From the IMG/VR virus record IMGVR_UViG_3300045020_000054, positions 1 through 45,132 of that record: a DNA stretch of 45,132 nt; one strand, written 5' to 3'. Both the position numbers and the translations under genes were made by a program. The notes beneath the pieces are model-generated. The model had not been told where the DNA came from. It saw only the letters and a list, made by a program, of their open reading frames with translations, and searched no databases. Numbering within the stretch: position 1 is the stretch's first letter; each line of letters starts with the position of its first letter. This document shows, piece after piece, positions 6,548-11,075 of this stretch. Source of the stretch: a virus.

Positions 6548-6778
6548 ATGCAATTGTCTGACCTGGTCAAACCCATCGAGGAACAGACCGACGAAGAACT
6601 ACGCGAGCGATTGCAGGCATTACGTTCCCGTCGAGAGATGGAACGACCTGCGAAGGCTAAGCATGTACAGAAGGCACAGAAGAAGGAGGTTAGGAAAAAG
6701 ATTTCCCCAATCCAAAAGATGCTTGAACAGTTATCACCTGAAGAAATTGCCCAACTATTGAAGGAGCATGGGGAATGA
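6548..6778 (+). CDS. Small basic helical protein with C-terminal LSPEEIAQLLKE motif
   Basis: The start is ATG 6548, following GTAGGAGA, giving 76 residues. It is almost entirely charged helix: LVKPIEEQTDEELRERLQAL, then a lysine/arginine-rich stretch (AKHVQKAQKKEVRKK), then MLEQLSPEEIAQLLKEHGE. The C-terminal motif resembles those of the proteins ending at 3155 and 40062. An adaptor or DNA-binding role is possible, but nothing is proven. The TGA overlaps the start of the ParB-methyltransferase gene (ATGA), so the two are probably co-translated. Confidence 0.72.
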   Translation: MQLSDLVKPIEEQTDEELRERLQALRSRREMERPAKAKHVQKAQKKEVRKKISPIQKMLEQLSPEEIAQLLKEHGE

Positions 6779-8106
6779 AATACAAAATGAAGGTTGTTAA
6801 GTTATCAGATATTGATGCCTCAAATAGGTATCGTGAAGATATGGGAAACATCGACGAACTTGCAGAAAGTATCAGGGAGAAGGGACTCATACAACCTATC
6901 TGCATAAGCACGGATAATAAGCTGTTAGCTGGTGGCCGCCGTTTTGCCGCATGCACCAAGCTTGGTCTGTTAGATGTTCCTGCTTTAGTGAGGGAAAGCC
7001 AAAGCGAGGTAGATTCACGCGAGATAGAATTAATGGAAAACATCCACCGGAAGGATATGACATGGCAGGAACAAGCCAAGTTGACGGCAGAGATTCATAG
7101 ACTGTATGCGAAGAACGACCCGAACTGGTCGCAACGCAAGACAGCCCAGCTTATCGAACAGAACCCAATGAATGTCACTCGCGCGCTGCGCCTTGATGCA
7201 GCCATGAAGGCTAACCCAGGAATCACCCTCTGCAAGACGGCCGATGACGCACAGAAGGTAATTAAGAAGGCTGAGGAAAATGCCATCGTAGCTGAGATGG
7301 CTAGAAGGCAGCAGGGATTAGTAAAACAGGTTGAATCAGGAGCAGTCAATGGACGTATTGAGAAAGGCCTCGCCATTGCCTGGAAAATGGCCGATGGGAA
7401 CTATAACATCGGAGACGTCTTCGAAGGAATGGCAGGTCTCAAAACAGATGGGGTCGTGGACTTTATTGAGTGCGATCCGCCTTATGGGGTTGACCTGGGA
7501 ACTCTGTCTGACCGGACTGATAAAGGGGCAGACCTTCGGGGCCGTGATAACGATTACCACGAAATTGCCGATGCCCAGTATCCAGAGTTCCTCTCTAAAC
7601 TTACCAAAGAATTGTATCGAGTGGCTGGAAAGAACAGCTGGATGGTATTCTGGTTTGCCTTCCGATGGTATCCAGAAGTTATTTCCTCACTTACTAGCGC
7701 TGGATGGAAACCGGACCTTGTACCTGCAATGTGGATCAAAGATACAGGTCGAACGCCACGCCCAGATATTCTTCTTGGACGATCTTACGAACCTTTTATC
7801 ATTGCAAGGAAGGGCAACCCAACTGTCGTAAAACAAGGAACATTGAATACCTTCATTGTTAATCCTGAAAAGAACAAGTATCATCCTGCACAGCGTCCCG
7901 TACAACTCTTGGAAGATATCATCAACACCTTCCTAGACGAGGGTCGTGGTACGGTATTTGTACCATTCCTCGGCAGTGGTGCAACCCTTCGAGCTTGTTA
8001 TAACCTAGGCCATCGTGGCTTTGGTTATGATACCAATAATGAGTATAAGGATAAATTCCTTCTTGCTGTCGATGAAGACGCAAAGAGGCTCCTTACCAAG
8101 GAGTGA
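6775..8106 (+). CDS. ParB/Srx-like N-terminal domain fused to DNA methyltransferase (N4/N6 class)
   Basis: A 443-residue fusion. Residues 5-110 match a ParB/sulfiredoxin fold, with the GGRR box in LAGGRRFAAC (51-60) and the helix ENIHRKDMTWQEQA (89-102). A helix-turn-helix-like stretch follows (SQRKTAQLIEQNPMNVTRAL, 119-138). Residues about 205-443 are an adenine/cytosine-N4 methyltransferase. DPPY (234-237) precedes the SAM-binding FLGSG (398-402) and GFGYDTNNEY, the beta-class order. The expected role is sequence-specific DNA methylation, for protection or regulation. It is coupled upstream (ATGA) and overlaps the next gene by 4 bases. No cognate restriction enzyme is visible. Confidence 0.88.
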   Translation: MKYKMKVVKLSDIDASNRYREDMGNIDELAESIREKGLIQPICISTDNKLLAGGRRFAACTKLGLLDVPALVRESQSEVDSREIELMENIHRKDMTWQEQAKLTAEIHRLYAKNDPNWSQRKTAQLIEQNPMNVTRALRLDAAMKANPGITLCKTADDAQKVIKKAEENAIVAEMARRQQGLVKQVESGAVNGRIEKGLAIAWKMADGNYNIGDVFEGMAGLKTDGVVDFIECDPPYGVDLGTLSDRTDKGADLRGRDNDYHEIADAQYPEFLSKLTKELYRVAGKNSWMVFWFAFRWYPEVISSLTSAGWKPDLVPAMWIKDTGRTPRPDILLGRSYEPFIIARKGNPTVVKQGTLNTFIVNPEKNKYHPAQRPVQLLEDIINTFLDEGRGTVFVPFLGSGATLRACYNLGHRGFGYDTNNEYKDKFLLAVDEDAKRLLTKE

Positions 8107-9119
8107 CCATGTTTATACAGACACAGGAAAGGAGTCAACTGCCAGGGAGTGGTAAGAAAGAAAGTCGCATTGCGATTGTCGGTGACTACACTGATGGTTT
8201 TGATGCGAATGCCAGAAAGCCTTTTAGTGGACCTGGCGGTACGGTGTTGGAAAACTGCCTGCATAATGCCGGACTGATCCGCGCAGAATGTTACTTCACT
8301 AACCTATTCAAGATCCAGACAAGTAACCCCATGCGATTGTATGGGGAGAAGAATAATGGCAAGTTTTACTTCACGGATGAGGGGCAGGAATATGTGGAGG
8401 CACTCCGGGAGGAATTAAGCCAGGTTAATGCCAACATATTCCTGGCTTGTGGCCCCGCAGCCTTTGCCGCACTATGCGACCTGGGACACCTTAGCATGTA
8501 CCGAGGGTATGTATTTGAAAGTACTCTGTTGCCTGGTCGAAAGGTTATTCCAACATTCCATCCGAAACAAGCCATGCGTGGTATGTATACATACCGCTAC
8601 CTTATAGCAGCAGACCTGCGAAAGGTGAAGGAAGAAAGTGAATTTCCTGGGATTCGTAGACCTGCAAGGACATTGGTGTATAGTTATGCCAGCGTACAAG
8701 AAGCGATCGATTGGCTTGACTTCCACATTGACAAAGCGCAGGTTGGCTTTGACATTGAGGTCATCAACTACGAGGTATCCTGCATCAGTTTCGCGTCTAC
8801 ACCGGACATTGCCTGTGTCATTCCGATTGCTGGCAGATGGAACCTTGACGAAGAATTACAGGTATGGCGGGGTATTCAGCGTGTCCTTGGCAATCCTTCG
8901 AGTACGAAAATCGTACAGAACGGTATGTTCGATATCCCCTTTCTTCTTACTCGCAATGGAATCGTTATTAGGGGACCAATCCATGACACGATGGTTGGAC
9001 ACTCTATCCTCTACCCAGAGCTTCCGAAAAGCTTGGGCTTCCTTGGGGGTATCTATTGCGGAAGCCAGGAGTATTGGAAGGACACGGTAAGGTTTAAGAA
9101 CATTAAGGATGAGTCATGA
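8103..9119 (+). CDS. UDG-like domain plus 3'-5' exonuclease domain (front part of a split DNA polymerase)
   Basis: A 338-residue protein. Residues about 20-180 follow the family 4/5 uracil-DNA glycosylase pattern: IAIVGDYTD in place of VGEAPG, KPFSGPGGTVL, YFTNLFK, CGPAAFAAL and TFHPKQAMR. Residues about 190-320 are a DnaQ/PolA-type exonuclease, with Exo I GFDIEV (D217, E219), Exo II QNGMFDIPF (D277) and HDTMVGHSILYPELPKS. The Exo III motif is absent and appears at the start of the protein at 9531. Together with that protein it gives about 852 residues, the usual size of phage UDG-Exo-Pol fusions. It is therefore probably one half of a two-subunit polymerase. Confidence 0.82.
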   Translation: MTMFIQTQERSQLPGSGKKESRIAIVGDYTDGFDANARKPFSGPGGTVLENCLHNAGLIRAECYFTNLFKIQTSNPMRLYGEKNNGKFYFTDEGQEYVEALREELSQVNANIFLACGPAAFAALCDLGHLSMYRGYVFESTLLPGRKVIPTFHPKQAMRGMYTYRYLIAADLRKVKEESEFPGIRRPARTLVYSYASVQEAIDWLDFHIDKAQVGFDIEVINYEVSCISFASTPDIACVIPIAGRWNLDEELQVWRGIQRVLGNPSSTKIVQNGMFDIPFLLTRNGIVIRGPIHDTMVGHSILYPELPKSLGFLGGIYCGSQEYWKDTVRFKNIKDES

Positions 9120-9298
9120 CACCTGAACGTTATGACCAGCTAATGAATCAATGGCCATCAGTGAAATTAACCCTAGGTGAACTGAAATTAGGCTGGCATT
9201 TTTGTCCTGAATGGGATGGATTACTTATTGGTCCTAATATGGAAGAAATGAAAGCCTGTAGCTGTTTTAGGAAGACATGCCCAACTTGTGAGGATTAA
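9116..9298 (+). CDS. Small cysteine-rich phage protein inserted in the polymerase locus
   Basis: A 60-residue protein starts in an ATGA overlap with the UDG-exonuclease gene. The central GWHFCPEWDGLLIGP motif followed by EMKACSCF and CPTCED is a signature I associate with small conserved phage proteins. Five cysteines could bind zinc. No function is known. Its position between the two parts of the polymerase is odd, and it has its own start and stop in a different frame from them. Confidence 0.7.
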   Translation: MTPERYDQLMNQWPSVKLTLGELKLGWHFCPEWDGLLIGPNMEEMKACSCFRKTCPTCED

Positions 9299-9301
9299 CT
9301 T

Positions 9302-9538
9302 ATGTCCTTAGAAAAATCAGTAACGAGAGATTGTGCCTTCGATGTGAACAAGGAAGGAAAGTATTACTTTACAATCAAGGAAGGTAATAGCACAATCTTC
9401 CAATCAAAGTTGTACGATACCTCAGAAGATTGCACAAGGGATGGTATTGGTATGTTGGATATCCTACATGAAAGGAATCCCATCCGAACTGAGTACGTAC
9501 CATCCAACGCAGAGTACGGGGTGAAGTACAGTGGATGA
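9302..9538 (+). CDS. Small DUF1508/YegP-like protein inserted in the polymerase locus
   Basis: A 78-residue protein starts at ATG 9302, three bases after the previous stop. GKYYFTIKEGNSTIFQSKLY followed by a helix (SEDCTRDGIGMLDIL) resembles the UPF0339/YegP unit, in which a two-strand hairpin with an xFQSxxY motif precedes a helix. The match is by eye only. The function of that family is not established. Its TGA overlaps the GTG start of the polymerase domain at 9531 by 8 bases, so it is coupled to it. Confidence 0.6.
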   Translation: MSLEKSVTRDCAFDVNKEGKYYFTIKEGNSTIFQSKLYDTSEDCTRDGIGMLDILHERNPIRTEYVPSNAEYGVKYSG

Positions 9539-11075
9539 AACCTTCCTAAAGTATAGTGCCCTTGATTCTGCTTGTATGGTAGAAATACATGATAAGTTTT
9601 GGCAAGACCTGGAAGAACAAGGGTACATGCCTACCTACCAGATGACACTTTCCCTTATGGAAGTTTTGCAGTTTATGCAGACTAGGGGAATGAAAGTCAA
9701 CCACACACTGCTTAATGAAACGAAAAGGGAAATCATACAGAGCCAGAAAGAAAAGCAGGCAGAACTAGATGAGTTGGTAGGCCATCCCCTAAACGTCAAT
9801 AGCAGCAAACAATGCCAGGCATACTTCTATGTCGAACTTGGACTTGCCCCTATCTTCAATCCCAAGACAAAAAAAGTCACCACCGACGACATGGCAATGC
9901 AGCGTCTTGTACGTGGGACCGCTAAGCAACCTGGCATACGTCAAGCTAAACTGGTACAAGAAATCCGAGGATTGTCCAAGCTATACAGCACATACCTTGA
10001 CATTAGCTTTGATGAAGATGACCGCATGCGGGGTTCCTATAATCCACGAGGGACTAAGTTTGGTCGGTTATCCAGCAGTAAAACGGTTTTTGATACCGGA
10101 ATGAATTTCCAAAACCTGCCACCGGAATTCAAGAAGTTCCTTGTGGCAGATGATGGATACATCCTGATTGAGGTCGATAAAAGGCAAGCAGAATGGGTTG
10201 TAGTGGCGTATAACGCCGACGATCCAAATATGATTAATGCCATAAAGGAAGGTAAGGACGTGCATGCGTATACCGCAAGCCTAATGTTTGACCTTCCAAT
10301 CAACCTAATCGAGTATGAAAATGAGTTGATTGGTCACAGTACAAATGCCGAGCAAATTCATATTGCCCGTATGAACGACGAACAGATTAGGAAGGTATAC
10401 ACACCTCGATGGATCAGAGGTATGTCACTTCGACAGTGTGGGAAGAAGTCAAACCATGGACTAAACTACGATGAAGGTTACCGTAACTTCGCCTTGCTAA
10501 ACGAGATGGAGGAAAAGGAAGCCCGGAGAATTGTGGAGATGTACCATGAAATCTATCCAGGCATCAGAAAGTCTTACGAAGTCACCAAGCGCCAATTGCA
10601 GAAGGATCGGACCCTTACTAATTGTTTCGGGCGTAAGGTCAGGTTCATGGGTGAGTGGGGTAATGATCTTTGGAAGTCAGCCTATTCCTTCATCCCACAA
10701 AGCACCGTTGTTGACTCTCTCAACCAGGGTATGGTCCGTATCTATAACGATACGCTCATTACCAAAACGTGGAATGTCGATATCTTGGCGCAAGTACATG
10801 ACTCCATCTTGATGCAGATACCGATAAAGGTTGCCAGAAATCAGGGAGCTTTTGAAGCCTTCATGCAGAAGGTTAATGAGTATACCAGCCCAACCGTGTC
10901 ATACAACGGCAATGAGTTCAAGATTGCCACAGATGCCAAGATTGGATTCAATTGGGGGGGTAAGCATAAGGTCAATAATGTGGAAGGAATGCGAGACCTG
11001 AAATCATATCAGGATGTTATTGACCTTCTCTCCTTAAGGGATACCAATGAGTCGGGAACTCTCGAACTGGCTTGA
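9531..11075 (+). CDS. Family A DNA polymerase, polymerase domain with residual Exo III motif
   Basis: The start is GTG 9531 (MDETFLKYSALD), giving 514 residues. The first 20 residues carry the Exo III motif (YSALDSACMVEI, Y8 and D12), which belongs to the exonuclease domain encoded at 8103. Motif A is IEVDKRQAEWVVVAY (D216), motif B is GKKSNHGLNY (about 304-313) and motif C is QVHDSIL (D424). Serine replaces the usual glutamate of HDE in motif C, a variant I believe also occurs in phage PolA proteins. The enzyme would replicate phage DNA. It needs the upstream protein for a complete exonuclease site. It overlaps the next gene by 29 bases. Confidence 0.9.
   Translation: MDETFLKYSALDSACMVEIHDKFWQDLEEQGYMPTYQMTLSLMEVLQFMQTRGMKVNHTLLNETKREIIQSQKEKQAELDELVGHPLNVNSSKQCQAYFYVELGLAPIFNPKTKKVTTDDMAMQRLVRGTAKQPGIRQAKLVQEIRGLSKLYSTYLDISFDEDDRMRGSYNPRGTKFGRLSSSKTVFDTGMNFQNLPPEFKKFLVADDGYILIEVDKRQAEWVVVAYNADDPNMINAIKEGKDVHAYTASLMFDLPINLIEYENELIGHSTNAEQIHIARMNDEQIRKVYTPRWIRGMSLRQCGKKSNHGLNYDEGYRNFALLNEMEEKEARRIVEMYHEIYPGIRKSYEVTKRQLQKDRTLTNCFGRKVRFMGEWGNDLWKSAYSFIPQSTVVDSLNQGMVRIYNDTLITKTWNVDILAQVHDSILMQIPIKVARNQGAFEAFMQKVNEYTSPTVSYNGNEFKIATDAKIGFNWGGKHKVNNVEGMRDLKSYQDVIDLLSLRDTNESGTLELA

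What the first reader, a model, noticed from the sequence alone, without database searches (positions are those of the whole stretch)
8103..11075. DNA polymerase split inside its exonuclease domain by two small genes
The protein at 8103-9119 has a UDG-like domain and Exo I and Exo II motifs. The Exo III motif (YSALDSACMVEI) is at the N terminus of the polymerase protein at 9531. Between them sit two complete ORFs (9116-9298 and 9302-9538) in another frame, overlapping both parts by 4-8 bases. The two polymerase parts share a frame. Single-chain UDG-Exo-Pol proteins of about 850 residues are the usual arrangement, and the parts total 852. The data therefore suggest insertion of genes into a once-continuous polymerase, with the exonuclease site rebuilt across two chains.
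Basis: partly seen in the sequence, partly recalled or inferred. Interest (0 to 1): 0.75.

Follow-up and report, generated by a model that had tools for sequence, protein, structure and literature searches.

The report
Two-part phage polymerase with swappable genes
This phage makes its DNA-copying enzyme as two separate proteins whose proofreading site needs parts of both; the same cut recurs in dozens of related phages, and the gap between the two genes is used as a docking place for small genes and selfish endonucleases.

Summary
The UDG/exonuclease ORF (8103-9119) holds Exo I and II, the polymerase ORF (9531-11075) holds Exo III and all polymerase motifs, and two small genes lie between.

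Intact relatives show that the enzyme was once one chain. But the two genes did not split it. About 30 related viral contigs carry the same cut in the same Exo II-Exo III linker and form one well-supported clade nested among intact polymerases. At least four members (L032, L041, L044, L045) have no inserted gene: exo stop and polymerase start simply overlap. Sister phages carry different cargo at that point. A second, separate clade (with Caulobacter phage Kuura) was cut at the same linker independently.

Best reading: an old, loss-free fission left an overlapping stop/start junction, which became a docking site for small genes and HNH endonucleases. In L008 one HNH inserted inside the exonuclease gene's 3' end, supplied a new end, and carries the old end fused to its own C terminus.

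A read-through AlphaFold model closes the exonuclease domain and matches whole Klenow fragment. Assembly of two real chains is untested. Split phage polymerases are known, so this is a new variant of a known kind.

The parts
8103..9119 (+). First chain: UDG-like domain plus the first part of the 3'-5' exonuclease domain (338 aa; probable true start ATG 8109)
   Evidence: Pfam UDG and DNA_pol_A_exo1; phrog_17 476-800
8751..8759 (+). Exo I motif, D217-I-E219
   Evidence: invariant in 11 aligned relatives
8919..8933 (+). Exo II motif, N273...D277
   Evidence: invariant in 11 aligned relatives
9081..9116 (+). Conserved exo tail DTVRFKNIKDES, the upstream half of the former Exo II-Exo III linker; its codons contain an AAGGA ribosome-binding-like run (about 9105-9113)
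   Evidence: [IV]K[DEGSK][DEN] in 24 of 26 split relatives; anti-SD duplex stronger than the gene background, p 2e-4, but not than the same linker in intact relatives
9116..9119 (+). ATGA stop/start overlap, the junction motif
   Evidence: ATGA or TAATG at most of the exo ends compared, whatever gene follows
9116..9298 (+). Small gene 1 (60 aa), Cys-rich GWHFC..WDGLLIGP...CPTCED protein; cargo
   Evidence: relatives at the same junction in other members; homologues in small-gene runs of unrelated phages
9302..9538 (+). Small gene 2 (78 aa), beta-beta-beta-alpha protein resembling DUF1508/YegP; cargo
   Evidence: Pfam DUF1508 sub-threshold, AlphaFold model, weak Foldseek hits 6q2z and YegP 2k8e; family of 7 at this junction
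9531..11075 (+). Second chain: Exo III segment plus the complete family-A polymerase domain (514 aa, GTG start)
   Evidence: Pfam DNA_pol_A 4.9e-44; phrog_17 804-1244
9552..9566 (+). Exo III motif, Y8-S-A-L-D12
   Evidence: invariant in 8 aligned polymerase chains

Best explanation
A UDG-Exo-Pol family-A phage polymerase underwent an old fission in the loop between Exo II and Exo III, without loss of residues. The two genes stayed adjacent with overlapping stop and start (TAATG/ATGA), so both chains are made from one message by translational coupling, and the chains assemble into one Klenow-like polymerase with a proofreading site completed across the interface (inferred). The junction then became a docking site: small genes and HNH endonucleases enter at the exo 3' end, use the coupling motif and pass it on to the next gene. 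The window's two genes are the current, replaceable cargo. Shown by sequence: the shared cut, the clade, cargo-free members, cargo turnover, conserved motifs, one HNH insertion that swapped the exo tail. Inferred: assembly, proofreading activity, coupling.
For: Same cut in about 30 contigs. Tree: main split clade of 27-30 rows, support 100/97 to 100/99, nested among intact polymerases. Cargo-free members with overlapping genes: L032, L041, L044, L045. Linker length kept: exo tail plus polymerase N-terminus is mostly 18-23 residues, against 16-22 in most intact relatives. Cargo swap: L012/L013 are 95% identical up to the exo stop, hold different genes, then 89% again; L027 and L018 carry an extra gene compared with sisters L011 and L015. 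HNH in L008, L034, L043, L050 and L107, absent from sisters L140, L035, L042, L045. L008 HNH: its last 44 nt are 91% identical to the exo end of sister L140, whereas L008's own exo end has diverged. Purifying selection: dN/dS 0.04-0.07 for both chains and 0.05-0.22 for small genes in close pairs where dS is measurable. Read-through model: pTM 0.81, nearly all of both parts at pLDDT about 90 or more, spacer below 50, matching Klenow 1kfs/8oo6 with TM 0.79-0.81 of the target.
Against: Ignoring what the cargo is, parsimony at the root of the split clade slightly favours 'cargo present' (cost 5 against 6), so a lost first insert cannot be excluded. The model is a single-chain proxy informed by intact relatives; it does not test whether two free chains bind. 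The ribosome-binding-like signal in the exo tail is no stronger than in the same linker of intact relatives (p 0.27). L034, L035, L012 and L013 show weak ribosome-binding signals before the polymerase start.
Confidence: 0.78

Rival explanations
1. Insertion first: a homing endonuclease (or another gene) inserted into the continuous gene and split it, as with mobE in Aeh1 nrdA; it was later lost or replaced, and the window's genes are later arrivals.
For: HNH genes sit directly after the exo end in five loci in two split clades; published precedents (PMC2988022); parsimony that ignores cargo identity does not exclude it.
Against: Sister loci lack the HNH genes, and homologues of those of L008 and L034 lie in unrelated phages, so they look like recent arrivals in an already split gene; cargo-free members occur in several branches; no other cargo family is shared between deep branches.
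Confidence: 0.2
2. The two products do not assemble: the phage has a stand-alone UDG/exonuclease remnant and an exonuclease-free polymerase.
For: No experiment shows association; a complex of the two chains was not modelled.
Against: Exo I, II and III residues all stay invariant although they lie on different chains; both chains are under strong purifying selection; the read-through model forms one compact Klenow-like body.
Confidence: 0.12
3. The break is bridged in RNA or protein (self-splicing intron, intein or programmed frameshift), giving a single chain.
For: Introns in phage polymerase genes are well known; the authors of PMC10580990 raised this for OM43 phages.
Against: No Rfam match at the junction even at relaxed thresholds, nor anywhere in the window; the intervening sequence encodes conserved proteins under purifying selection; cargo-free members use a plain stop/start overlap, and frame differences vary among relatives.
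Confidence: 0.03
4. Assembly or sequencing artefact.
For: The window is an uncultivated virus record.
Against: Same arrangement in about 30 independent contigs, in a bacterial MAG (L139, L140), and at the same linker in the isolate Caulobacter phage Kuura.
Confidence: 0.005

Closest known systems
[quoted passage not shown] PMC2988022)
   Same: A replicative phage polymerase encoded as two adjacent genes; an endonuclease gene or untranslated spacer in the break; order of fission and endonuclease arrival debated; the two parts co-purify and are active
   Different: Family B, unrelated enzyme and unrelated cut; here family A with an N-terminal UDG domain, cut between Exo II and Exo III, and exchangeable small-gene cargo across a large clade
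mobE-split nrdA of phage Aeh1 (PMC2988022)
   Same: Essential enzyme in two chains with a free-standing HNH endonuclease in the break; stop/start overlap with the upstream gene is described for T4 mobE
   Different: Single described insertion, and the HEG is regarded as the cause of the split; here HNH genes look like later arrivals and L008's HNH replaced the tail of the upstream gene
Split family-A polymerase of OM43 phages MEP401/MEP402 (PMC10580990)
   Same: Family-A phage polymerase in two ORFs with one small ORF of unknown function between them; conserved in a phage group
   Different: Cut lies within the polymerase domain (exonuclease plus N-terminal polymerase / C-terminal polymerase), not inside the exonuclease domain; no UDG domain and no cargo turnover in the passages read
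Intact UDG-Exo-Pol polymerases (Desulfofustis phage LS06-2018-MD01, Microcystis phage Mel-JY34, Pseudomonas phage PaBG gp205)
   Same: Same domain order (PaBG from PMC7412058); the first two align with the window proteins along their length
   Different: One chain; in the first two the linker at the cut is continuous

Membership tests
UDG-Exo-Pol family-A phage DNA polymerase (phrog_17 type) | UDG-like, 3'-5' exonuclease and family-A polymerase domains in this order | tested here: met
   Pfam and PHROG matches
UDG-Exo-Pol family-A phage DNA polymerase (phrog_17 type) | Exo I, II and III residues and polymerase motifs A, B and C conserved | tested here: met
   Invariant columns, (polymerase D216, R301...K305...Y313, H423-D424)
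UDG-Exo-Pol family-A phage DNA polymerase (phrog_17 type) | Single chain | tested here: not met
   Two ORFs; a member by descent, not by architecture
Split ('genes in pieces') phage enzymes | Two adjacent ORFs together equal one intact homologue | tested here: met
   Intact relatives align across the cut
Split ('genes in pieces') phage enzymes | Homing endonuclease in or beside the break | tested here: not met
   None in the window; present in relatives L008, L034, L043, L050, L107
Split ('genes in pieces') phage enzymes | Parts assemble into an active enzyme | not testable with these tools
   Only a single-chain proxy model
Intron-interrupted phage polymerase gene | Group I or II intron RNA at the junction | tested here: not met
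   No Rfam match at E up to 5 in 8800-9900, nor at gathering score in the whole window
Split-intein polymerase | Intein splicing motifs at the two ends | tested here: not met
   Exo tail NIKDES* and polymerase start MDETFLKY carry no Cys/Ser block A and no terminal Asn block G, by inspection
DUF1508 (YegP-like), for small gene 2 | Pfam gathering score and fold | tested here: inconclusive
   17.5 bits against cut-off 22; weak fold hits to HVO_2922 and YegP

The most novel reading that the evidence does not exclude
The junction is more than a safe landing place: the small proteins made between the two halves act as exchangeable accessory subunits that bind or regulate the assembling split polymerase, so that the phage changes polymerase behaviour by swapping cargo.
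Probability: 0.1. Interest if true: 0.8.

Novelty: new variant of a known kind. Interest (0 to 1): 0.52.

Why it matters
The order of events in split phage genes (fission first, or endonuclease first) was left open for the T4-like polymerase. Here a graded series of relatives, from intact to cut without cargo to cut with cargo, favours fission first. One locus also shows how an HNH gene can enter an essential gene without breaking it, by supplying a new end. If the chains assemble, the family gives natural two-part proofreading polymerases whose exonuclease site crosses a subunit boundary, useful for studying or controlling proofreading.

Tried and rejected
Group I/II intron at the break: no Rfam match. 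Shared frame of the two parts as evidence: rejected, since frame differences vary among relatives. HNH as the universal cause: rejected as shown fact, because sister loci lack it and homologues of two of the HNH proteins lie in unrelated phages. One origin of all splits at this linker: rejected by the AU test (p about 2e-58), though two origins plus a poorly placed L049 remain. Exo tail as an evolved ribosome-binding site: stronger than the gene background (p 2e-4) but not than the same linker in intact relatives (p 0.27), so left as a possible pre-adaptation. Using A1 (8 diverse sequences) for a collection scan failed, no conserved stretch. A 17-nt overlap at the L027 insertion was examined and is mostly ribosome-binding-like sequence, not a clear target duplication. 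One row of the first tree (L050) was frame-shifted by a wrong start; corrected in later trees.

Full report
WHAT IS THERE. The window is an uncultivated virus record of 45,132 bases. Pfam finds UDG and DNA_pol_A_exo1 in the first protein and DNA_pol_A in the last. The PHROG polymerase profile phrog_17 matches the two proteins at consecutive stretches, 476-800 and 804-1244. Exo I (D217, E219) and Exo II (D277) are on the first chain and invariant among close relatives; Exo III (Y8, D12) and the polymerase motifs are invariant on the second.

RELATIVES. In named phages the same polymerase is intact in Desulfofustis phage LS06-2018-MD01, Microcystis phage Mel-JY34 and others. It is cut at the same place in Caulobacter phage Kuura, with two unrelated small genes in between. 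Scans of IMG/VR with the window proteins and with alignments of them gave about 30 contigs with the cut at exactly this linker, and more than 50 intact ones (with classification). Two more cut copies lie in a Pseudomonadota MAG (L139, L140).

ORDER OF EVENTS. In maximum-likelihood trees the main split group (27-30 rows) is one clade with support 100/97 to 100/99, inside a larger group of intact polymerases. Four members, L032, L041, L044 and L045, have no gene in the break: the exo stop and the polymerase ATG overlap as TAATG. L042 also has no room for an insert, its polymerase frame opening at or just before the exo stop. The summed linker (exo tail plus polymerase N terminus) is mostly 18-23 residues, as in most intact relatives (16-22), so the cut removed nothing. 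The window's two genes therefore did not make the split. Kuura, L107, L108 and L137 form a second split clade, sister to intact polymerases; forcing all split rows into one clade is rejected (AU p about 2e-58). The same linker has thus been cut at least twice, unless chains were re-fused. Whether the very first event was a stop/start mutation or a since-lost insert is open: parsimony blind to cargo identity is nearly tied.

THE JUNCTION AS A DOCKING SITE. Sister phages differ in cargo. L012 and L013 are 95% identical in DNA up to the exo stop, then carry different genes, then are 89% identical again; L027 has an extra 182-aa gene compared with L011, and L018 an extra 60-aa gene compared with L015. 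Clustering the inserted proteins gives one family of 13 (Cys-rich, window gene 1), one of 7 (window gene 2), a group of 4 HNH proteins, and many singletons. Relatives of window gene 1 sit in runs of small genes in unrelated phages, so it is general phage cargo. Most exo ends compared have ATGA or TAATG, whatever gene follows, and the tail nearly always reads [IV]K[DEGSK][DEN] (24 of 26), which often encodes AAGGA-like sequence. This suggests that cargo plugs into a translational-coupling motif; the ribosome-binding part of that claim is weak, since the same linker in intact relatives is about as purine-rich.

A CAUGHT INSERTION. HNH endonuclease genes follow the exo gene directly in L008, L034, L043, L050 and L107 (L008's HNH has no Pfam hit and is called from phmmer clustering and phage homologues). 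In L008 the last 44 nt of the HNH gene are 91% identical to the exo 3' end of its sister L140, which has no HNH, whereas L008's own exo end is far more diverged from L140. The HNH gene therefore inserted inside the exo coding end, brought a substitute end (SLVNFHDIKENS), and carries the displaced original (VKFNDIKENS) as its own C terminus. Homologues of the L008 and L034 HNH proteins are found in unrelated phages, which fits independent arrivals.

DOES IT WORK AS ONE ENZYME? Both chains are under strong purifying selection (dN/dS 0.04-0.07 in close pairs), and small genes too (0.05-0.22 where measurable, except the window/L009 pair of gene 2 at 0.47 and an unassigned ORF shared by L012 and L013 at 0.64). 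The in-frame read-through of 8103-11075, with the out-of-frame stretch acting as a nonsense spacer, was folded with 43 other rows from the loci (intact chains and separate halves): pTM 0.81, almost all of both parts at pLDDT about 90 or more, spacer residues 333-474 below 50. The model matches the whole Klenow fragment (TM 0.79-0.81 of the target). The exonuclease domain closes, but this is a tethered proxy built with intact relatives in the alignment and does not prove that free chains bind.

KNOWN PARALLELS. T4-like phages have split polymerase (43A/43B) and NrdA genes with endonucleases in the break; the split products assemble or co-purify, and the order of events for gene 43 is stated to be unclear (PMC2988022). 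OM43 phages have a family-A polymerase cut within the polymerase domain with a small ORF between (PMC10580990). I found no description of the present cut, its clade, or its cargo turnover in the library searched; most subscription literature is not in it.

VERDICT. Real, conserved, of at least two independent origins, and probably a working two-subunit proofreading polymerase; a new variant of a known kind.

Noticed in passing
L008:2089-2559 and L140:1055-1098: HNH gene whose last 44 nt are the displaced 3' end of the upstream exonuclease gene (91% identical to the sister phage's exo end); the upstream gene received a substitute end. A self-compensating insertion.
   Followed up: yes
L014:6648-9119, L055:4968-7454, L079:3998-7441: Intein-like in-frame inserts of about 306-312 aa: at polymerase motif B in L014 and apparently the same site in L055 (56% identical), and before motif A in L079 (32%). 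N-terminal Cys and C-terminal VTGN|S in L014 and L079; no intein or LAGLIDADG Pfam hit in L014.
   Followed up: partly
L054:5603-5649, L059:3318-4992, L007:5662-6194, L126, L127, L129: A second fission site in the same polymerase family, just before polymerase motif A, with about 0 to 2.3 kb between the halves; in L127 and L129 the insert includes a DnaQ-like exonuclease by eye.
   Followed up: partly
L002, L107, L108, L137: A second split clade (Kuura-like) cut at the same linker, with about 0.6-2.7 kb of genes in between, including an HNH/AP2-type endonuclease (L107) and, by eye, MazG-like and HD-domain-like genes (L137).
   Followed up: partly
window 8103-8650: UDG-like domain with a degenerate motif A (GDYTDGFDANARKPFSG, against GEAPGEEE..PFVG in intact Mel-JY34), so it may have lost glycosylase activity.
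   Followed up: no
window 6775-8106: ParB-like domain fused to a DNA methyltransferase directly upstream of the polymerase; the same kind of neighbour occurs in intact and split relatives.
   Followed up: no
L006:1727-4364: Podovirus ctLwi270 has its UDG-Exo-Pol cut after Exo III, with an ORF of 86 aa resembling an NrdR-type zinc ribbon (by eye) between the parts.
   Followed up: no
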